From NCBI RefSeq assembly GCF_026151205.1, contig NC_087077.1:9787983-9851982 (forward strand): DNA of 64,000 nucleotides. Reading direction: 5' to 3'. The notes beneath the pieces were generated by a model. It was given only the letters and a program-made list of their open reading frames with translations. It was not told the origin of the DNA and searched no databases. Position numbers and translations under genes: made by a program. This document shows, piece by piece, positions 44,301 to 64,000 of the stretch. The stretch's first letter is position 1; every line of letters begins with the position of its first letter. The stretch is from Bolinopsis microptera (Eukaryota > Ctenophora > Tentaculata > Lobata > Bolinopsidae).

Positions 44301-47300
44301 CACCTGGGCACATCGGCATAGTTAATTACTAATTAGTAAATTAGTTAATTTGAGTATTGATATAACTCTGTCAAGCAGAAGCCCTGTGTTAAGTATAGTT
44401 TACAATTCCAGAGTGGTTGAAAACAATAGCAGTTACTGTATATGGCTGGTTGGGGACTGGCCCTAAGTGCCCACTAATGTTTACTCAAAATATATATGAC
44501 AATAATATAATCAATCTCATAAAATAATAAATTCAGAATTAAATCTAGATAATAATAATGATTAAGCTAAGTTTGTTTTGTAACTAACCAATGACGTCAG
44601 AGTAGAGTCCAGGAGGACACTGTTCACAGTTACCGGCAGGGTTTATGTAACTTCCCTTTCCACAGGCGATACACTTATCACTTCCTGGCGCAGAGATCTG
44701 GAGGCCGACAAATTTATACAGAAATTAAAATGTTAGCTTTAGATAATTTGTAATTTTGTATAAAGTATATAAATAGGTCGATATGATTATTCATAGGAAG
44801 CAACCCACTCTACCATACACCCGACGCTACATCGGTTAAACTTATTACATTTATAGAGTTATAGGATACCCGTTGCTCTCTGACCTGATCTGAAGGGCAG
44901 GGAGTACAAGTATCCACACCACCAGCACTGAAGGTGTTCTCCGGACACGACACACACTTGTTGCTGTCCTGGTGTTGTCCGGCTGGGCAAGCTGTACAGC
45001 TGCTGGCTCCATCGTCTGACATGTGACCTGGACATAACAGTATGGTTACTTTTGTTTTTAGTTACCAAGTTGATAATAATAATAATAATAATAAGTTGAA
45101 GCAAAGTAAATGGATCAGATATGGATTTCATGTAATTGCTCATTAAACCAAGAGTTTTAAAAACCCAAAAATGCACTTTCATGAATATTTATGAACAGTG
45201 ACTGTACTCAGTAACTTACATCTGTAGGGGAAAAGTTTCGAATTTTTCGGTGGAATCAGAGAAGTTAAGCAATCAATGTATAGCCGAGAAAAGGGGTTTT
45301 GAACTAATTACGGCAGATATGATTTACCTGCCGGGCAAGCATTACAAGACAGAGCCCCGACAGTGTCAGAGTAAGTTCCCTTGGCACAAGGAGTGCAGGT
45401 TTCAGCACCGTCAGCACTGGAGTAGGTACCAACCGGGCACTGTTTGCACTTCGCACTTCCCTCCTCGTCAGCGTAGTTGCCAGCTGTACAGGTCTGGGGG
45501 AGAGAGGGTGCGTGATAAATTACTTCTATAAAGTAATACTGATTACTGAGTGGGTTGTTAGGGGTTTAGGGGTTTATTGTTTGAATAAGTCACACAAATA
45601 GTGAGGCTATTGTGGATTTTACATGACAAGCTTATAATGCGAAGATATCTTATACTACATTAAAATTAATAAACTGGACGTACCTTGCAGTCTGTGTTCT
45701 CAGCTCCATCATTAAAATATCCTTTCTTACACAGTTCACACTCCTTTGCAGAGTCTTTCTGGGAGAATGTACCTGTAAGGACGATGTGATTAATGGAAAT
45801 ATCACGTGGAGAATCTTAAAATTGAAATCATCCAATGTTTGAAGAAAATACAGGATACCTTAGTTTGTTCGTAGTTATCACGCACGATGTGTACTAATTC
45901 AAACAACACATCACACCTGTGATCCTTTAAGAATCTCACTTTTCAATTCGATTGCTAGAAAGTTTACCTGGTCCACATTTATCACAGCTGTCGCTGCCGT
46001 CAACAAGAGAAGCGGTACCAGCAGTGCACTTGAGACAAGCCGCACTGCCAGGAGCCCCGGAGTACTCCCCAGCAGGGCACTGCTGACAGCCTGCAGATCC
46101 TGCTGAGGCGCTGTAGCTTCCTGACATGCACTTCACACACGACACTCCTCCTGGTGTGAATCTCGTTACAGTTTCACGACGTTTCGTTCTAACAGAAGTA
46201 CAAATTCTAAGTAGTACAAATAATGACAGAAATCGGGAAAAAAGTAAACCAAGCCTCGTATGCGAAGTTATCATGCTAGCAGTACCTGTGTCTGCCTGGT
46301 ATTCTCCAGCTGGGCAAGCTTGGCACGGTTCCAGACCACTAGCGGAGATAGTACCAGGGGTACAGCCGTCTTTACAGTCTGATATAGATCTTGCTCCCGT
46401 GTCCACGGTTGTGAGACCATCTGGGCATGCTTGACACGAGGTTGATCCAGGCTGATCCTGGTAGAAACCTGGAAACGTTAATTTTTAAAACTTGAAATAA
46501 ATAGAATAGCGATCGATATCCTCCCTAAAGCGTCATGAGTGAACCTCAAATGTTATACGTTAGTGCTGAAAGTATTTAAACTAAAAGATTCGATCGTATT
46601 TTTGATTCTTAATTAAATCATGAACACGAACCACATCACTATTCACTTCCCCTGCAAGTTTCAGCCGGTATAAGCGACGGTACTAACCTCTAGTTACTAC
46701 TTCAGTACTCTTACTAACCTCTAGCACAAGGGTTACACTGTGTCTGCCCCTTCTGATCCTGAAAGGAACCTGGACCACAGTCTCTGCAGGGGAAGTTACC
46801 GTTCGCGGAGCTCATCCCCTCGTTACATGGTCCTGCAAGGAGGGTTTATCTAAAGTTTGTAGGTTCTCGTAACTGATTTATAGACTTTGAAAAATGTAAT
46901 TTAATTAATATTCCATCACATTTCTGCAATTCCCGTCATAATCTAGCTCACTGTTTTTTGTTATAAAAGTCGACATAATTATCTGTTATTAATTACAAAC
47001 CAGCGCAAGGTCCTTTCCACCCGACATAACTTTGACAATACCCAAAGTAATCAGCATCCGAGAACCCAGTGAATACCATGCCGTCATCAAAAGCAACAAT
47101 AGAGAGACTGCACAGTTCCTTAACCAGCTCACAACTGCTAGTGAACTCCACCAGACTGGTGTCGCACACGGGGGAGGGTGCTACTCCGGTGCAGTCAGGA
47201 CAGTTCCCTCCACCACCGTCTGTGGGACATTTACCTTTCTGGGATATGTACCCTCCTACTATACCTTGCACTGATAGGTCACTGTAATGGGAGCAGGGTC

Positions 47301-49619: not shown

Positions 49620-50668
49620 ACAACGGGTGCTGGCAGTGGCGTAACGTTATGCTACTGAGTCTGGCAGTGGCGTAATGTTACGCTACTCATGGGTGCTGGC
49701 AATGACGTAACGTTACGCTACTGAGTGCTGACAGTGGCGTAACGTTATGCTTCTGAGTGCTGACAGTGGCGTAACGTTATGCTACTGAGTCTGGCAGTGA
49801 CGTAATGTTACGCTACTCATGGGTGCTGGCAATGACGTAACGTTATGCTACTGCGTGGTGACAGTGGCGTAACGTTACGCTACTGAGTGCTGACAGTGGC
49901 GTAACGTTATGCTACTGAGTCTGGCAGTGACGTAATGTTACGCTACTCATGGGTGCTGGCAATGACGTAACGTTATGCTACTGCGTGCTGACAGTGGCGT
50001 AACGTTACGCTACTGAGTGCTGACAGTGGCGTAACGTTACGCTACTGAGTGCTGGCAGTGGCGTAACGTTACGCTACTGAGTGCTGGCAGTGACGTAATG
50101 TTACGCTACTCATGGGTGCTGGCAATGACGTAACGTTATGCTACTGCGTGGTGACAGTGGCGTAACGTTACGCTACTGAGTGCTGACAGTGGCGTAACGT
50201 TATGCTACTGAGTCTGGCAGTGACGTAATGTTACGCTACTCATGGGCGCTGGCAATGACGTAACGTTATGCTACTGCGTGCTGGCAGTGGCGTAACGTTA
50301 CGCTACTGAGTGCTGGCAGTGGCGTAACGTTACGCTTCTGAGTGCTGGCAGTGGCGTAACGTTACGCTACTGAGTGCTGGCAGTGGCGTAACGTTACGCT
50401 ACTGAGTGCTGGCAGTGGCGTAACGTTATGCTACTGCGTGCTGACAGTGGCGTAACGTTATGCTACTGCGTGCTGGCAGTGGCGTAACGTTTCGCTACTG
50501 AGTGCTGGCAGTGGCGTAACGTTATGCTACTGCGTGCTGGCAGTGGCGTAACGTTATGCTACTGAGTGCTGGCAGTGGCGTAACGTTACGCTACTGAGTC
50601 TGGCAGTGGCGTAACGTTACGCTACTGCGTGCTGACAGTGGCGTAACGTTTCGCTGCTGAGTGCTGGG
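49620..50668. repeat. ~33-bp satellite array with palindromic core
   Basis: About 32 units of GTGCTGGCAGTGGCGTAACG + TTACGCTACTGA. Each unit contains the palindrome GCGTAACGTTACGC or a one-base variant. Variant units (GACGTAATG, CTCATGGGTG, GCAATGACG, CTGCGTG) recur in the same order at about 49660-49860, 49790-49990, 49920-50110 and 50090-50280, giving a higher-order pattern of roughly 4-6 units. Confidence 0.95.
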
Positions 50669-53700: not shown

Positions 53701-56700
53701 TTACCTAGTAGTAGTACTCCCATAATCCGACTTTTCAGGAACATGACTCCCCCTATCTTGTAACCCCTCTTCAGAAATGGGCCAAAAGTACCACACAAAC
53801 AAAGGAACAGGGAGAAAGCTGATCAAAAATATTAGCACTTTTATGCCAAATTCTGGATATGACAGGAACGTTTTCTGAAAATTTAAATATATTAACATGG
53901 ACTTGACAAATTTTTTTTGAAAATATCACTTAATTCGCCAGCCAAAATCATTCCTTTTCAATTGCCTATATTAAAGGAACAAAATCAAATTCAACTCAAT
54001 TAATGAAATCAATGAAATCAATTAATGATTTAACCACCTTATGAGTGAGTAAAGCTGGTGTCTAACCTTGAACCATGATTTAGTGCCAGTAAGACCCTTG
54101 TACCCAACACCTTCACACCCTACATACTTCTTATAGTTAGGGTGCTCTATCAGAGACACTCCAGCCGAGGTGACCAGGATCAAGAAGAGGACTGCTGGAA
54201 TGTACCATTTTATCAGCCACTTCCTGAATGTAGTTTCCCAGGGTTATTGCAGGACCATCGCGGACAATCTGCATTTCTTGTTTTTATTGTGCAAATGTTG
54301 TTCGTCAAGTCGATCTAAATTCTATTCTTTCGTGTTATATAAACTTACAAAAATAACCTACCAACAGTCGTTCATTGTGAGTCCTGAACGTTCTTCTAGT
54401 TCTTCGTCTAATCTATCTAAACCATAGAACCAACTTATATACGTGCACTCTAACAGCGCCTGAAGACATAATAGTGACGTAATAATGACGTAATAGTGAC
54501 GTAATTCTAAACCTATTGAAGCATTGAAGTGCACGACAAGAAAAATGGCTGAGAACCAAACACCTTGAAGCAATTTCAGCTGATGGAATTTAGGTCGATA
54601 AGGTAGTTTTCTACTACCTTATACTCTTATACTGCGTGGATTATTGTTCGGATTTTTAATTTCACTGTAAAAACTAGAAATTTCTCAATCGTTTGATAAG
54701 CTTTGATAAAGACACAACCGTTAATGGATGAAAATCAATATAATCATAAATTAAATTTAAATATTCACAAAGTAACTGCTAAAACACAGCCAAATATTAT
54801 CATCACTTCAAATTCATTTCTGCAACATATCCAAAATAGTTTTAGCGTCTTCAGGACTCTGAGCACTCCTCCTCTTGTGTGGTATCACGTGACCAGACAC
54901 TCTCTGTCTCCCTCTCCTGTTCTTGAAGAAGTTGGATACTTGTGAGTAGGACAGTTTCGCTTGTCTGGACAGTTCACGCTTCTCTTCTGGAGTGGGGTAC
55001 GGGTTCTTATCGTAGAATTCCTGTAAGGTAGTCCGGGATGATTCCTTAAAAAGGTGTCTGTCGGCATCTCCGTTCCAGATGGTAGGGGGGAATGGGTAAC
55101 GCTTCCTCAACCTGTATCTGTCCACTGCATTCAGGTTCTTTCCTCTCCGTTGCTTGGAAGCTCGCTGGTAGGTAGCTTGCTGCCAAATCTCTTGAAATTG
55201 ATGGTGAAGACGTTCAGGTTGATGGGTTTGAGAAATAAAGTCCAGGACTTCGTCGAAGAGTCCATCTGCAAGCATCTCCCTAGCTGTGATAACGGCTGAG
55301 TTCTCTGCGATCAAGTCCAGGAGGTTCAGTTGGTCGCTGGAGTTAGCGGTCTGATCATGTTCAGGGTTGAACAAATGAGGGACTTCTCCCGCTGTTGAAG
55401 GTTGTAAGAGTGAAGCTAGGTCTTGAGTTGGGAGGGAAGGGGTGATGTCCAGTATTTCGTAACCAGAGTATCCAGAAACAGGCGGGTAGGACTGGTCGGA
55501 CAGATAGCTTGACGTAGACTCCTCAGAAGAAAGGGAGTTGTATTGATACTGGTAGGGAGGTGGTTGTAACTGGATCTCGTCCAAAGCAAGAATCTCTGTA
55601 CATAAGTTTTGTTCCAGATCGTCAGAGAAGCTAGAATAGGAAACTGTAGGTAGGGAGCTGGACGGGGTTGGATATCTCCAAACATCGTCAAACGTGAAGT
55701 ACTGAGCTTGAGAGGGGGAAGTTTGCGGAGTAATGTAGGATTGCAGTTGATCGTAATCAGGGAAGTAGGTCGGTGTAGACTGGGACTGAGGTTGGGATAT
55801 TTGGATTGGTGACAGTTGCATCTTAAATTTGTTGGTTTTCGTTGATGTTGTTGTTGTTGTCGATAATCAAAACTGGATGACGATTCGAATACGTCACCAA
55901 TATTTATACAAATCGGTGGTATTTTTGCACATGGCTGATTTGATTGTTCAGCATGTCAGTGACTTGAATCTGATCACGCTGATAGGAATTCGTCACCTGA
56001 TCGCATGACATTCGTCAGTATGACTGGAATTCTCAATGATATCCTGCACTGTGCGTTATGTTGTAATATGACTATTGACTGATTGACTATCGTGTCAGAT
56101 GCAAAGATCATATCACCGAAATTTACATTGACTATATCATACCGAATCTTGATTCGAATTGGAATGTGCTAGTCAAATGAATTGACATGATAATGAACAA
56201 TAATAATAATATCATAATTATGATAGTAGACAGTTCTCATGAAATTCCTGAATTGGAGATCGAAATTTATCGTCGATTGGCTTATTGAATTATGATTCTA
56301 GCCATTCCTGAGGCAAAAAATGATGATATTAATTCGGGCGTTCTTTTGATATGTTCATAATCAGCCCTTATTTTGTCGAGTCGTCGACTTAACATCAGAC
56401 GGAGAAACGGAATTGTTCGAGATACTAGCAGGTGTGTTACAGGGTGATACCTTAGCACCTTACCTTTTTGCAATAGTCATCGACTACTGTATGAGGCAAG
56501 CCATAGGTGATGATGCGGAGCGACTTGGACTCACTCTCGAACGTACAAAAAGCAGAAGAGTGGGCCCCAAGATCATCACCGATGTGGACTTTGCAGATGA
56601 TATAGCACTTTATATATGTCAGTACTGCTCTAAGGATCAGAAACCTGGACACTTATAAAGGCTCAAGAAAAAAGTTTGGACGGGACATACACAAAAATGC

Positions 56701-59700
56701 TGCGTATGGTGCTGGGTATCTCATGGAAGGACAAGGTCAGCAATATAACTTTGTATGGTAGTCTACCAAGGCTGTCAAACAAGTTACGAAGCAGGAGACT
56801 AAAAATGGCGGGACACTGCATCAGACATCCTGAGCTACTTGCCAATGATTTAGTCTTATGGGAACCTATGCATGGTAGAGCACAGCAAGGCCGACCAAGA
56901 CCAAGCTACTTGTCTATGTTAGTAAAGAAAGTTGGGACAAACTCTAAAGAGAAACTGCGAACCCTGATGCGGGACAGGGATATATGGAGGGGATTATCTG
57001 GTGTAGATCGGACTTAGTTCCGACATAGTAGTAGTAGTAGTAGTTAACATCATTATCATCGTCCTACTTAGTAGGATCAGAGACTATATTAGGATAAGTT
57101 CGAGCTTCTTGTTCGCAAGCATTGTCCAAAGAATTCCTTGTTTGATCATCCATTCGCCATCCAAGCTCAAACATATGAAGTGTCTAACGGAAACATGATG
57201 TACCCCACTCAAACGGTGAAAGATCTAGGAGTGACAGTTTCCGCTGATTTGTCCTGGACCCCACACGTCAACAGGATAGCTGAACTTGCAGAAAAAGTTG
57301 CTTCTTGGGTGCTAAGTGCGTTCAAAACGAGAGACAAAGCCACCATGATGACTCTATACAAGTCTCTCGTTAGAAGCCATCTGGAGTATTGCTGTCCTCT
57401 GTGGAATTGCTCTAAGAACAAGGACATCCAACAGCTAGAAGGGATTCAGCGTACGTTTACATCGAAAATAGATGGTACCCAGCACCTCAACTACTGGCAA
57501 AGATTAAAGGCCCTAGATCTGATGTCATTGCAAAGAAGAAGAGAACGGTATTTAATCATCAACATGTGGAAAGTTCTGCATTGCAAGTGCCCCAATGATA
57601 TTGGTATCCAGTTCTCAGTGACTCTCAGACATGGTCAAAAAGCAGTTGTGCCCGGTATAGCTAAGTCCAGCAGTCAAAGTAATCAAGCACTACATGACAA
57701 CTCATTTGCAGTCACTGGACCTCGATTATGGAATGTAATCCCAACACATATGCACACCATTGAGGATCCTATGCAATTCAAAGCAGGTTTAACGAACTTT
57801 GTGAAGTCATTTCCGGACGAGCCTCCAGCTCCAGGATACAGCCGTCGGAATGGATACTCCTTGCTGGATTGGAGTGGTGACAAAACAGTTTCTATACTGT
57901 CCGGGGGTCGACTTTTTCGATGGCCCGATAGAGGATTCTATGAAGCCCTACAAAGTAACAAAGTAAGTAAAGCGGAAGTATGTTTGGCCGCGATTTTTTA
58001 CATGGCGATGTGATCGTGATCTGATCTCAGGATCTAACTAGCTGGCCACTGAACAGTTAGTCATGTTATCATGTGACGTATTACGTGTGATCGTATTACA
58101 GATTAATATCTCTGAAACAGTCGATGTTATTTTTGCAGACGTTAAAAATGTGGTAAAATCACTGTCAACATAGTATATTTGTATTGTGTAAGATATCACT
58201 TGGGCCAATGAATGAATTCTTTGTGAACTATTTTTGAAGATTCAAATTTAATTCCAACTTACAGTACCTAACATTTTCAAATTTTAAAATAAGTATTGAT
58301 CGATTAAAGAATGAAAGACACAACGATTTATCAATAATGAATTACAATTAAATAAAATATTTAAAAATAAACTGTTAAAACACAGTCACATATAATCGCT
58401 CCAAACAGATTCATTTCTGCAACATATCCAAAATAGTTTTAGCGTCTTCAGGACTCTGAGCACTCCTCCTCTTGTGTGGTATCACGTGACCAGACACTCT
58501 CTGTCTCCCTCTCCTGTTCTTGAAGAAGTTGGATACTTGTGAGTAGGACAGTTTCGCTTGTCTGGACAGTTCACGCTTCTCTTCTGGAGTGGGGTACGGG
58601 TTCTTATCGTAGAATTCCTGTAAGGTAGTCCGGGATGATTCCTTAAAAAGGTGTCTGTCAGCGTCTCCGTTCCAGATGGTAGGGGGGAATGGGTAACGCT
58701 TCCTCAACCTGTATCTGTCCACTGCATTCAGGTTCTTTCCTCTCCGTTGCTTGGAAGCTCGCTGGTAGGTAGATTGCTGCCAAATCTCTTGAAATTGATG
58801 GTGAAGACGTTCAGGTTGATGGGTTTGAGAAATAAAGTCCAGGACTTCGTCGAAGAGTCCATCTGCAAGCATCTCCCTAGCTGTGATAACGGCTGAGTTC
58901 TCTGCGATCAAGTCCAGGAGGTTCAGTTGGTCGCTGGAGTTAGCGGTCTGATTATGTTCAGGGTTGAACAAATGAGGGACTTCTCCCGCTGTTGGAGATT
59001 GTAAGAGTGAAGCTAGGTCTTCAGTCGGGAGGGAAGGGGTGATGTCCAGTATTTCGTAACCAGAGTATCCAGAAACAGGCGGGTAGGACTGGTCGGACAG
59101 ATAGCTTGACGTAGACTCCTCAGAAGAAAGGGAGTTGTATTGATACTGGTAGGGAGGTGGTTGTAACTGGATCTCGTCCAAAGCAAGAATCTCTGTACAT
59201 AAGTTTTGTTCCAGATCGCCAGAGAAGCTAGGATAAGAAACTGTAGGTGGGGAGCTGGACGGGGTTGGATATCTCCAAACATCGTCAAACGTGAAGTACT
59301 GAGCTTGAGAAGGGGAAGTTTGCGGAGTAATGTAGGATTGTAGTTGATCGTAATCAGGGAAGTAGGTCGGTGTAGACTGGGACTGAGGTTGGGATATTTG
59401 GATTGGTGACAGTTGCATCTTAAATTTGTTGGTTTTCGTTGATGTTGTTGTTGTTGTCGATAATCAAAACTGGATGACGATTCGAATACGTCACCAATAT
59501 TTATACAAATCGGTGGTATTTTTGCACATGGGTGATTTGATTGTTCAGCATGTCAGTAACTTGAATCTGATCACGCTGATAGGAATTCGTCACCTGATCG
59601 CATGACATTCGTCAGTATGGCTGGAATTCGCAATGATATTCTGCACTGTGCGTTATGTTGTAATATGACCATTGACTGATTGACTATCGTGTCAGATCCA

Positions 59701-62700
59701 AAGATCAGATCGCCTAAATTTACATTGACTATATCATACCGAATCTTGATTCAAATTGGAATGTGCTAGTCAAATGAATCGACATGATAATGAACAATAA
59801 ACGGTGAACATTATGATATTAGACATTCCTCATGAAATTCCTGAATTGGAGATCGAAAATGTATCGTCGATTGGCTTAAATTGAATTATGATTTTAGCCA
59901 TCCCTGAGGCAAAAAATTATGATATTAATTCGGGTTTTCTTTTGATATGTTCATAATTAGCCCATATTTTGTCGACTTAACGTCATTATCATCGTCCTAC
60001 TTAGTAGGATCAGAGACTATATTAAAGCGTTAGTATATTTGGCCGCGATGTTTTACATGCTGCAACAAGGATAACGTTCAAGGCTTAGAATATCTCCCCT
60101 TTTTCGAAGGAACAATCATTGAAAATGAAGAACACTGCCTCACTGAATGTCCAATGTACCACTCAGCGAGACTCTCACTGTCGGAAAACCTTAAGAGTCT
60201 TTTGCTGCTCAAGGAATACGGAGCTATCATGAATTCTGCCCATGTGCAAGAACTGGGCAAATTCCTTTGCAACTGTCACCGCATCAGGAACCCGAAAAAG
60301 ACGCCAATACTGCCTGTCACCCCATCAGGACTACCAACTCAACAGACATAATACAGATCAACCATCATTATGCAGATTTCACGATCTGTTGTACGAGGAA
60401 GGAACACTAGTGATTACTGTTTCCAGTACGTTGTGACTGTGAGTGGGAGGTCTGTTTGAGTATGAATGTGTCTTTTGTGGACTCGAATACTAATATCGCA
60501 GTTTAGTGACCATTGAAGTTGCCTTTTACTACTTCCTCTTATGTTAAATTATTATTTCAGCAATTATTTCTATTTCGGTTGTTTGTACGGGAGTTAAATT
60601 TTAAGTGATTTTGTTTTAAATTTTCATGATTCTTGAATCTCGAATTTTACTTACTCTAGATATGTTATTCATTCATGTATAGTCGAGACGATGGTGTTAG
60701 TGCCATCTCCGACAACTTTACGTTTAATTCCGTTTAATAATTCCGTTTAATTCCATGGTGATGTGATCCAACTGTCGTGATCTGATCTCAGGATCTAACT
60801 AGCTGGCTAGTGGACAGTTAGTCATGTTATCATGTGACGTATCACGTGTGATCAATATCTCTGAAACAGTCGATGTTATTCTTGTGATCTGATCTTTAGA
60901 TCTGGCAAGCTAGTCAATGGTCATGTTGCAACATTACGCAAAGTGCAGGATATCATTGCAAATTCCAGTCATACTGACGAATGTCATGAGATCAGGTGAC
61001 GAATTCCTATCAGCATGATCAGATTCAAGTCACTGACATGCTGAACAATCAAATCAGCCATGTGCAAAAATACCACCGATTTGTATAAATATTGGTGACG
61101 TATTCGAATCGTCATCCAGTTTTGATTATCGACAACAACAACAACATCAACGAAAACCAACAAATTTAAGATGCAACTGTCACCAATCCAAATATCCCAA
61201 CCTCAGTCCCAGTCTACACCGACCTACTTCCCTGATTACGATCAACTACAATCCTACATTACTCCGCAAACTTCCCCTTCTCAAGCTCAGTACTTCACGT
61301 TTGACGATGTTTGGAGATATCCAACCCCGTCCAGCTCCCCACCTACAGTTTCCTATCCTAGCTTCTCTGACGATCTGGAACAAAACTTATGTACAGAGAT
61401 TCTTGCTTTGGACGAGATCCAGTTACAACCACCTCCCTACCAGTATCAATACAACTCCCTTTCTTCTGAGGAGTCTACGTCCAGCTATCTGTCCGACCAG
61501 TCCTACCCGCCTGTTTCTGGATACTCTGGTTACGAAATACTGGACATCACCCCTTCCCTCCCAACTCAAGACCTAGCTTCACTCTTACAACCTTCAACAG
61601 CGGGAGAAGTCCCTCATTTGTTCAACCCTGAACATGATCAGACTGCTAACTCCAGCGACCAACTGAACCTCCTGGACTTGATCGCAGAGAACTCAGCCGT
61701 TATCACAGCTAGGGAGATGCTTGCAGATGGACTCTTCGACGAAGTCCTGGACTTTATTTCTCAAACCCATCAACCTGAACGTCTTCACCATCAATTTCAA
61801 GAGATTTGGCAGCAATCTACCTACCAGCGAGCTTCCAAGCAACGGAGAGGAAAGAACCTGAATGCAGTGGACAGATACAGGTTGAGGAAGCGTTACCCAT
61901 TCCCCCCTACCATCTGGAACGGAGACGCTGACAGACACCTTTTTAAGGAATCATCCCGGACTACCTTACAGGAATTCTACGATAAGAACCCGTACCCCAC
62001 TCCAGAAGAGAAGCGTGAACTGTCCAGACAAGCGAAACTGTCCTACTCACAAGTATCCAACTTCTTCAAGAACAGGAGAGGGAGACAGAGAGTGTCTGGT
62101 CACGTGATACCACACAAGAGGAGGAGTGCTCAGAGTCCTGAAGACGCTAAAACTATTTTGGATATGTTGCAGAAATGAATCTGTTTGGAGCGATTATATG
62201 TGACTGTGTTTTAACAGTTAATTTGTAAATATTTTATTTAATTGATTATTCATTATTGATAAATCGTTGTGTCTCTCATTCTCTAATCGATCAATACTTA
62301 TTTTAAAATTTGAAAATGTTAGGTACTGTAAGCTGAAATTAAATTTGAATCTTCAAAAATAGTTCACAAAGAATTCATTCATTGTCCCAATAAAGTGATA
62401 TCTTACAAAATACAAATACCAAGTTGACAATGATTTTACCACATTTTTAACGTCTGCAAAATACAAATGTTGAATGCTAAATACTAACCGCCATGCAGAT
62501 AACTGGATTAATAGTGCCATCCATTGCCTCGAAGAGGTACACCCCATTACCCATTAGAAAGGGTAGACCTGTTAACGCACATGTCAGTGTTATCACCAGT
62601 GACAGGATACTGTAAGGGATGTAACGGAAACCTCCTACCTCCATCAGGGACAACGTTACAGCGTTTACCTGATTAGAACAACATTTGTCAGGGACAACGT

Positions 62701-64000
62701 TACAGCGTTTACCTGATTAGAACAATATTTATAAATAAATAGGGTTTAATATTAACCAATGGCAAGAAGGCACGTGTGAAGTTCGCTCTTAAATTGTAGA
62801 CCGATTAACAAAGAACAAATCTTAGTGTTGTTCGGATTCTCGCTCTTCTATTAAAATATCAAGGTTGATAATCTACATGACAGTACATGGAGTCAATGGA
62901 TATAAGGACGAGAGCCACGAAGAAGAGAATGCTCCAAATATTAGGAACGAGGAAATAACTGAAGATGTTTGGGAATACAGAGAAAACCACACTTGCTCCT
63001 CGTGACACGAATACCTCTTGCTTCGTTCGTTCTGAAAACAACCGGAATATCATTACACGGAAGAATGTATGCTCAAAAAAAATATTCCTACATCTGAATA
63101 TCTACATATTATATCATTTAGCTCAGTTAAATTGATAAGGTACTGCATATTGTATTTTAATACTCAAGAACCCTAAAAAATATACTCTGTAATATATATT
63201 ACTATATACAGTAAAACCACGATTTACCGCGTCCCGATTTACCGCAAACCCCAATTTACTGCGGATGTTTCCTTTCCCCAAACTCCGCGGTAAATCGGGG
63301 TTTTACTGTACTCAGTACATTACTTACTCTTAGTTTTACTGTACTCAGTACATTACTTACTCTTAGTTTTACTGTACTCAGTACATTACTTACTCTTAGT
63401 TTTACTGTACTCAGTACATTACTTACTCTTAGTTTTACTGTACTTAGTACATTACTTACTCTTAGTTTTATTGTACTCAGTACATTACTCACTCTTAGTT
63501 TTACTCTACTCAGTACATTACTTACTTTTAGTCACCATGAGATGTCCTATAATGGCGTAGAGTATTAGCGCACTGACAACTGACACTGTCATGTTAAGGA
63601 AACCAATGAGCAGAGCCTCAAATGTGGGGTATCCCGGGTCCCTGGAACGGGCTTTAAATGTCATCAGGAGTCCTATTCCTACACCACATGTGTTCAATGT
63701 CTGAAATTTTAACGTCGCTCAAATTCAGACACCATAGAACCATGGTTATTTTGTAAGGATACAATAAGAGCACTATAATAAGAACAACCTAGCTGCATAG
63801 GCATGTACAATGTACTGTACACTATACACACCTTGTACACACCTTCCATAAACATTCACCTGGGACATAAGATCGAGCAGCATCAAGGGTACAGATATTC
63901 TGTTCATATCACCGAGATTTGGAGTTATAAACGTTACTAATCCGATAAGAGCTCCGTCCAGGAACAAAACTCGTACAAAAATAATCAGCAGGATCATCAG
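53701..64000 (-). CDS. SLC6-type sodium-coupled neurotransmitter/amino-acid transporter, 3' part
   Basis: Membrane symporter, C-terminal two-thirds only; the gene continues past 64000. Exons in transcription order: 63860->64000, 63532-63701, about 62890-63030, 62489-62668, 54362-54459, 54067-54223, 53701-53874 (TAA at 53701-53703). Signature pieces in SLC6 order: [14 protein letters not shown] (TM6-7 loop region), [14 protein letters not shown] (TM7), [25 protein letters not shown] (TM8), [17 protein letters not shown] (TM10-like), [14 protein letters not shown] (TM11), [15 protein letters not shown] and a last helix [20 protein letters not shown] before the tail. The usual SSYN segment after TM7 is replaced by ARSRD, so transport properties may differ or be lost. 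The 54459-62489 intron contains the SIX genes. Confidence 0.8.
54814..55821 (-). CDS. SIX-type homeobox gene, copy A
   Basis: 335-residue single-exon transcription factor. Residues about 1-150 are Pro/Ser/Gln/Tyr-rich and probably activating. Residues about 175-245 align with the C-terminal part of a SIX domain ([45 protein letters not shown]). A homeodomain follows to about 310 ([37 protein letters not shown]). The recognition helix reads [14 protein letters not shown]: Asn51 and Arg53 are kept but Trp48 is Phe and Gln54 is Gly. The N-terminal half of the SIX domain is not visible. Intact frame with its own TATA box, nested in the SLC6 intron. Differs from copies B and C at a few N-terminal residues. 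Confidence 0.88.
55901..55909 (-). promoter_or_regulatory. TATA box of SIX copy A
   Basis: GTATAAATA on the minus strand about 80 bases upstream of the ATG, followed by a CRE-like TGACGTA. The same arrangement is kept in all three copies. Confidence 0.6.
56398..57043 (+). mobile_element. 5'-truncated LINE with (TAG)n tail
   Basis: Flanked by a 9-bp direct repeat TTAACATCA (56389-56397, 57044-57052); the empty site is seen in segment B near 59977. It includes the end of an RT domain ([20 protein letters not shown], then [10 protein letters not shown] with the FADD catalytic motif) and the C-terminal region ([20 protein letters not shown]). Frames are interrupted near 56658. The 3' end is (TAG)n, like 100-235. 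Confidence 0.85.
56413..57017 (+). pseudogene. LINE reverse transcriptase remnant
   Basis: Two frames, 56413-56658 and 56676-57017, carry the RT palm end with FADD and the conserved C-terminal part ([27 protein letters not shown]). A gap or frame change separates them. Non-functional. Confidence 0.75.
57095..57972 (+). mobile_element. CR1/jockey-like LINE fragment
   Basis: Carries the ORF at 57138-58013. The junction with the duplicated SIX segment is visible by comparison with segment B (60020-60060), where the sequence on both sides is nearly contiguous. Confidence 0.7.
57138..58013 (+). pseudogene. C-terminal fragment of a CR1/jockey-type reverse transcriptase
   Basis: Frame open for 291 codons; no catalytic palm. 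Typical post-RT helices are visible: [37 protein letters not shown], then a terminal region [16 protein letters not shown]. The last ~15 codons run into flanking sequence. Confidence 0.75.
58411..59418 (-). CDS. SIX-type homeobox gene, copy B
   Basis: 335 residues, same architecture as copy A. Differences lie in the N-terminal region (for example [14 protein letters not shown] and NPEHNQ) and one Ala/Ser change near residue 213; the homeodomain is identical, including Phe at position 48. Frame intact. Coding changes concentrated outside the DNA-binding part suggest constraint, although the copies are too similar for a firm test. Same strand as copy A and as the host transporter. Confidence 0.88.
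59499..59507 (-). promoter_or_regulatory. TATA box of SIX copy B
   Basis: GTATAAATA-type motif in the same position as in copy A. Confidence 0.6.
60060..60750 (+). mobile_element. Fragment of the LINE family seen at 14933-16343
   Basis: Encodes a relative of the terminal Cys/His region ([34 protein letters not shown]) with stops and frame changes. The 3' end has a GTTTAATTCC repeat. Flanked by CATG-containing sequence; segment A shows a candidate empty site near 58005. It sits at the centre of the B/C inverted duplication. Confidence 0.75.
61084..61090 (+). promoter_or_regulatory. TATA box of SIX copy C
   Basis: TATAAAT 81 bases upstream of the ATG; a CRE-like TGACGTA follows at about 61097. 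The 5' UTR is CAACAACAACAACATCAACG-rich and is conserved in all copies. Confidence 0.65.
61171..62178 (+). CDS. SIX-type homeobox gene, copy C
   Basis: 335 residues, opposite orientation to copies A and B. N-terminal region is a mosaic of A-like ([14 protein letters not shown]) and B-like ([18 protein letters not shown]) states. The homeodomain is identical with the Phe48 and Gly54 changes. Frame intact; same TATA box. The mixture of states suggests gene conversion between copies. Confidence 0.88.
62647..62735. repeat. 44-bp tandem duplication of an SLC6 splice acceptor
   Basis: The segment covering the acceptor and first codons of the SLC6 exon (TCAGGGACAACGTTACAGCG on the plus strand) occurs at about 62646 and 62690. 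Use of the outer acceptor would place an in-frame stop after the first repeat, since 44 is not a multiple of 3. Confidence 0.85.
63209..63308. mobile_element. 100-bp MITE of Tc1/mariner/pogo type
   Basis: Inverted ends CAGTAAAACC(A/C)CGATTTACCG and TA on both sides (63207-63208, 63309-63310). The CAG start, palindromic build and TA duplication are typical. Confidence 0.8.
63297..63515. repeat. 33-bp tandem repeat seeded by the MITE end
   Basis: About six copies of TTTTACTGTACTCAGTACAT + TACTTACTCTTAG. The first eight bases equal the right end of the adjoining MITE, so the unit seems to comprise the MITE terminus plus flank. It reaches within about 20 bp of the SLC6 donor at 63532. Confidence 0.9.

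What the first reader, a model, noticed from the sequence alone, without database searches (positions are those of the whole stretch)
54814..62178. Three near-identical intronless SIX-type homeobox genes with Phe at homeodomain position 48, nested in a transporter intron
All three copies keep intact frames, TATA boxes and 5' UTRs. The recognition helix has VSNFFKNRR where homeodomains almost always have W48-F49. Gln54 of SIX proteins is Gly. The N-terminal half of the SIX domain is replaced by a low-complexity Pro/Ser/Tyr region. The set looks like a recently amplified, divergent SIX subfamily, with unusual DNA-binding potential.
Basis: partly seen in the sequence, partly recalled or inferred. 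Interest (0 to 1): 0.85.

Follow-up and report, generated by a model that had tools for sequence, protein, structure and literature searches.

The report
Divergent comb-jelly SIX genes, three copies
Three nearly identical, intact genes for an odd comb-jelly version of the SIX developmental control proteins sit inside an intron of a transporter gene; their unusual DNA-binding residues are shared with many distant relatives rather than new here, and comb-jelly relatives of this sort were already noticed in 2010.

Summary
Three intact 335-codon intronless ORFs encode SIX-class proteins with F48, G54, K50, N51. They lie in an 8,029-base intron of an SLC6-type transporter gene of Bolinopsis microptera and are the only copies found in that genome. 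The reading needs changing. F48 is not new here: 43 of 50 readable database relatives (51 collected, F48 queries) have F or Y at 48, and 20 of them share G54. Loss of Trp48 in ctenophore SIX genes was published in 2010 (MlSIX59a-e and one more); F48 is standard in ONECUT and SATB. What my literature searches did not turn up is the combination: (1) the SIX domain lacks its first third, including the helix where V17E stops EYA binding, although the genome keeps one EYA gene and a complete SIX1-like gene; (2) the homeodomain has Arg5, normally absent in SIX proteins, with F48 and G54; (3) gene bodies are more alike between copies than most flanking sequence, suggesting gene conversion plus selection. 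Most likely: working, EYA-independent SIX transcription factors with shifted DNA preference. Transcription and binding were not tested. A new variant of a known ctenophore SIX expansion, of moderate interest.

The parts
54814..55821 (-). copy 1, intronless SIX-class gene, 335 aa
58411..59418 (-). copy 2, intronless SIX-class gene, 335 aa
61171..62178 (+). copy 3, intronless SIX-class gene, 335 aa, inverted relative to copies 1 and 2
61675..61905 (+). copy 3 SIX-domain remnant (residues 169-245 = profile 35-112)
61921..62100 (+). copy 3 homeodomain (residues 251-310; R5, F48, F49, K50, N51, G54)
55087..55317 (-). copy 1 SIX-domain remnant
   Evidence: by register with copy 3
54892..55071 (-). 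copy 1 homeodomain
   Evidence: by register with copy 3
58684..58914 (-). copy 2 SIX-domain remnant
   Evidence: by register with copy 3
58489..58668 (-). copy 2 homeodomain
   Evidence: by register with copy 3
55901..55908 (-). TATAAATA of copy 1
59498..59505 (-). TATAAATA of copy 2
61084..61091 (+). TATAAATA of copy 3
54460..62488 (-). intron of an SLC6-family (Pfam SNF) transporter gene that contains all three SIX genes, GT..AG
58345..59677 (.). arm of a 1333-base inverted repeat (98%) with 60912-62244: duplicated unit of copies 2 and 3
60912..62244 (.). other arm of that inverted repeat

Best explanation
These are three working copies of one gene for a divergent SIX-class transcription factor of a ctenophore. 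The homeodomain binds DNA in the ordinary way through helix 3 (K50, N51, R53 kept); Phe replaces Trp48 in the hydrophobic core, Gly54 removes a base-reading side chain, and Arg5 restores an arm contact that SIX proteins usually lack, so DNA preference is probably shifted from that of SIX1. The SIX domain has lost its first helices, so the protein probably cannot hold EYA by the known helix-1 interface and instead regulates genes through its long disordered N-terminal region (with conserved motifs) and its conserved C-terminal helix. The gene was duplicated locally inside the SLC6 intron, and the copies are kept alike by gene conversion and purifying selection. Shown: anatomy, conservation, copy number, divergence pattern. 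Inferred: EYA independence, shifted DNA preference, gene conversion, expression.
For: SIX1_SD and Homeodomain matches; SIX1 is the top PDB match by sequence and by fold. 26 relatives came; 20 of them have F/Y48 with G54, and 16 of those 20 have R5, as do all three window copies. SIX domain matched only from profile position 34-54 in 10 of 10 database relatives scanned, of 26 then in hand, and only from 35-53 in 8 of 10 own-genome SIX ORFs scanned, of 15 listed; the other two, L021 (1-113) and L024 (12-112), show that the profile finds the missing part where it exists. AlphaFold2 model: residues 1-163 nearly all under pLDDT 50, four SIX-domain helices, three homeodomain helices, a C-terminal helix 323-334. 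V17E, in the first helix of the SIX domain, stops Eya binding (PMC8293042, abstract and passages). One EYA domain in the same genome, 339 bits. dN/dS 0.14-0.38 between copies. Synonymous divergence 1.8-2.7% against 5-11% in the 5' flank at 100-300 bases (p 0.31, 0.001, 7e-5) and 18-31% in the 3' stretches compared.
Against: No transcript, DNA-binding or EYA-interaction data. Only 9, 9 and 14 differences per pair of copies, so dN/dS is weak. The flank contrast fails for c1-c2 on the 5' side, and for c2-c3 the first 100 bases after the stop are 97% identical; its 3' contrast uses bases 100-350. The model is of low overall confidence (mean pLDDT 61, pTM 0.33, 23 rows) and cannot prove that no helix 1 forms. 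P0019 has G54 with W48, and P0016, P0018, P0021 and P0023 lack R5, so the three residues are not an inseparable set; own-genome L024 has R5 with W48 and Q54. The database searches used F48 proteins or their alignment as queries, which enriches F48 among the hits.
Confidence: 0.66

Rival explanations
1. Recent retrocopies or decaying pseudogenes of a normal SIX gene that landed in an intron.
For: Intronless; retroelement-like ORFs lie between the copies (56350-58010; resemblance recalled, no Pfam match).
Against: All three frames open, the 100 bases before the ATG identical, dN/dS under 0.4. The duplicated units reach beyond the coding sequence on both sides, which is a DNA-level duplication. 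No parent: next own-genome match 53% over 88 residues, apart from a 45-residue piece at 60%. Full-length relatives of the same layout exist in the database.
Confidence: 0.07
2. The second or third copy is an assembly artefact: alternative haplotypes placed side by side.
For: Copies differ at 9-14 codons, which a heterozygous animal could show; the published B. microptera assembly came from noisy-read assembly with wtdbg of a diploid animal (PMC10232365, passages).
Against: The repeats found run only from 54809 to 62461, so the SLC6 exons are not duplicated; one copy is inverted, and the sequence between copies differs. The cluster of P0001 (96.7% identical to copy 3) holds 11 member sequences, which may mean several copies or several samples.
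Confidence: 0.12
3. The proteins have lost DNA binding and act as dominant-negative partners.
For: Core Trp48 and contact residue Gln54 are both changed.
Against: 50 of 51 database proteins match the pattern used, which demands K50, N51 and R53, and all 50 have F49; P0034 does not match. F or Y at 48 is tolerated in other homeodomains (PMC4901127; PMC10515288; passages).
Confidence: 0.1

Closest known systems
Mnemiopsis leidyi MlSIX59a-e (Ryan et al. 2010) and their Bolinopsis counterparts L014, L048, L051, L055, L056 (and L068, by its hit only)
   Same: SIX class, single open frame in the own genome, F48 (also in MlSIX59e = P0039), SIX domain matched only from profile 48-53 in the three own copies scanned (L014, L048, L051)
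   Different: They end two residues after homeodomain position 54, have N5 and S or C54, and are 27-30% identical to the window protein; the window clade has G54 and mostly R5 and goes on about 30 residues with a conserved tail
Bolinopsis L022 and database P0020, P0022, P0024-P0026 (W48, M54; P0026 is from Mnemiopsis leidyi)
   Same: SIX domain matched only from profile 34-35 in the three scanned (L022, P0020, P0026)
   Different: W48, M54, L5
SIX1/2 (human SIX1; own-genome L021)
   Same: SIX domain plus K50 homeodomain; L021 is 67% identical to SIX1 over 141 residues
   Different: Complete SIX domain in L021, W48, Q54
ONECUT and SATB homeodomains
   Same: Phenylalanine at position 48 (PMC10515288)
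   Different: CUT class; similarity at 48 is presumably convergent (inference)

Membership tests
SIX/SINE homeobox class | SIX domain directly before the homeodomain | tested here: met
   SIX1_SD 58.2 bits against cut-off 27.4, but only profile 35-112 of 113
SIX/SINE homeobox class | Lysine at homeodomain position 50 | tested here: met
   K50 in all three copies
SIX/SINE homeobox class | Complete SIX domain of about 115 residues with the EYA-binding helix 1 | tested here: not met
   profile 1-34 unmatched; complete in L021 as control; the link of helix 1 to EYA is from PMC8293042
SIX/SINE homeobox class | Basic residues absent from the N-terminal part of the homeodomain | tested here: not met
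   R5 in the window copies and 16 of 20 F/Y48-G54 relatives; class trait from PMC4901127
SIX1/2 family | ETSY at homeodomain positions 3-6 | tested here: not met
   ADRH; trait from PMC2959044
MlSIX59 group | Homeodomain cut short at about codon 57, end of protein | tested here: not met
   window proteins continue 31 residues past position 54; trait from PMC2959044
MlSIX59 group | No Trp48 | tested here: met
   F48
Single origin of non-Trp48 SIX genes | F/Y48 rows form one clade | tested here: inconclusive
   Not one clade in the free tree (3 changes over 42 rows); held together AU p 0.124, the 23 G54 rows with F/Y48 alone p 0.072; long branches present

The most novel reading that the evidence does not exclude
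The ctenophore SIX radiation is an EYA-free branch of the SIX class: an ancestor lost SIX-domain helix 1 before the group diversified, freeing the homeodomain to be retuned (Arg5, Phe/Tyr48, Gly/Met/Ser54), so that ctenophores run two parallel SIX systems, one canonical with EYA and one EYA-independent and expanding by local duplication with gene conversion.
Probability: 0.4. Interest if true: 0.62.

Novelty: new variant of a known kind. Interest (0 to 1): 0.42.

Why it matters
SIX and EYA are usually seen as ancient partners (general knowledge). This ctenophore, of a lineage thought to be sister to other animals, holds a complete SIX gene, an EYA gene and a set of SIX genes without the EYA-binding helix. 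That makes it directly testable whether the SIX-EYA partnership can be dropped, and how a homeodomain class changes DNA preference when a core residue, a base-reading residue and the arm change together.

Tried and rejected
Retrogene of a canonical parent: rejected, no parent found. Phage origin: no match. Phe48 as unique to this locus: rejected. Identity with MlSIX59: rejected by the tail and by residues 5 and 54. Whether the window clade is the sixth non-Trp48 Mnemiopsis gene, named once as 'MlSIX45' in PMC2959044 (not among the SIX rows of its table in the passages I saw), could not be settled: none of the 20 F/Y48-G54 database hits carried a name, so neither their species nor their being ctenophore is shown by a call. 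Pfam on three ORFs between the copies gave nothing. A full count of SIX domains in the genome with PF16878 did not complete. What I call undescribed rests on the listings and on passages of some of those papers; supplements were not open to me. In the structure list SIX1 is the only one of 50 rows whose aligned range starts before residue 200 (5hod_A starts at 208); other families are not excluded by that list.

Full report
Where it is. The window lies in a 264,652,675-base genome of 232 contigs. A SIX protein of the same genome (L056 on contig C10, 18,271,524 bases) is 100% identical to a database protein named Bolinopsis microptera on a contig of exactly that length (P0027), and the published figures for that species (265 Mb, 13 chromosomes, largest 26.2 Mb; PMC11797021, table passage) fit contig C1 (26,206,493 bases). 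The organism is the ctenophore Bolinopsis microptera.

What is there. Three ORFs of 335 codons match the SIX domain and the homeodomain (copy 3 scanned). The proteins differ at 3 (c1-c3), 5 (c2-c3) and 8 (c1-c2) residues. A protein search of the genome gave 28 matches: the three copies and 25 others, the best of which are 53% over 88 residues and a 45-residue piece at 60%. A DNA search gave the three copies and one 65-base fragment. Minus-strand exons on both sides encode an SLC6-type transporter (Pfam SNF 8.9e-19), and the intron that I read from GT..AG sites is 54460-62488.

How the copies arose. Copies 2 and 3 are arms of a 1333-base inverted repeat (98%), copies 1 and 3 of a 1272-base one (99%), and copies 1 and 2 are direct repeats, so this is duplication of DNA with flanks, not retrotransposition of a transcript. 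For c1-c2, c1-c3 and c2-c3, dS is 0.027, 0.027 and 0.018 and dN 0.010, 0.004 and 0.006. In the same order: the 100 bases before the ATG, including TATAAATA, are 100% identical in each pair; DNA for residues 163-335 is 99.4, 99.4 and 100% identical; bases 100-300 upstream are 95, 89.5 and 89%; the first 100 bases after the stop are 69, 71 and 97%; the next 250 are 49, 44 and 82%, where the lowest figures are in effect unalignable. Synonymous sites are less diverged than the 5' flank in two of three pairs (p 0.001 and 7e-5; c1-c2 p 0.31) and than the 3' stretch compared in all three, but for c2-c3 that stretch is bases 100-350, since its first 100 bases are as alike as the gene. I read this as gene conversion of the gene body plus selection; it is an inference, and differing duplication breakpoints would explain part of the flank contrast.

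How widespread the odd residues are. Two searches gave 26 relatives and a third, with the other F48 group as query, 25 more. With a pattern that allows W, F or Y at 48 and demands K50, N51 and R53, 50 of the 51 could be read: 43 have F or Y at 48 and 7 have W; P0034 did not match. The set with F/Y48 and G54 counts 20 database proteins, 16 of them with R5; it reaches down to 47.5% identity to copy 3 among full-length members with F48 and R5 (P0014). P0019 has W48 with G54, and own-genome L024 has R5 with W48 and Q54. On a tree of the SIX-homeodomain region (42 rows) the window copies join P0001 with full support (100/100), P0001-P0018 in a 21-row group (88/72), and P0019, P0021 and P0023 in a 24-row group (92/90); the deeper groups are not at the starred level. 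With residue 48 masked the tree needs three W/non-W changes; holding all 30 non-W rows together is not rejected (AU p 0.124), nor is holding the 23 G54 ones (p 0.072). Several long branches make the deep order unsure.

What was known. Ryan et al. [quoted passage not shown] MlSIX59e in the database (P0039) has F48 and ends right after the homeodomain. The window clade is a different one. A 2014 study (PMC4083861, passages) treats the ctenophore SIX genes as often long-branched and hard to place. [quoted passage not shown] A CUT review (PMC10515288, a legend passage) gives F48 for ONECUT and SATB.

Conclusion. The clade is a divergent, apparently functional SIX branch with no EYA helix, an arm arginine and an altered recognition helix, present here as three recently duplicated copies in an SLC6 intron. 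Expression and DNA binding are the missing facts.

Noticed in passing
G000 contig C9 about 1,549,300-1,564,000: Five neighbouring SIX-type homeobox matches of equal homeobox score (the first, L013, has W48 and M54), apparently another local SIX amplification in the same genome.
   Followed up: partly
L014, L055, L056, L068 (contig C10), L051 (C11), L048 (C3): Second F48 SIX group; the five copies read to their end (L068 was not) stop two residues after homeodomain position 54; the Bolinopsis counterpart of MlSIX59.
   Followed up: partly
L024 1450-2487: SIX ORF with nearly complete SIX domain (profile 12-112), W48, Q54 and also Arg5, on a very long branch.
   Followed up: no
56350-58010: Plus-strand ORFs between copies 1 and 2 that look like pieces of a non-LTR reverse transcriptase (recalled resemblance; no Pfam match).
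   Followed up: partly
50014-50663 and 63267-63563: Arrays of roughly 32-base and 33-base units, the second between exons of the transporter gene.
   Followed up: no
45939-46484 (-) and 46996-47298 (-): ORFs with ephrin-receptor-like cysteine repeats (PF07699 1.3e-24) and a Kazal-like domain just under its cut-off, probably exons of one neighbouring gene.
   Followed up: no
G000 contig C4 15,747,925-15,955,173 (L009-L012): Four homeobox genes with equal scores and long open frames, another apparent homeobox amplification; they gave no match to the SIX queries.
   Followed up: partly
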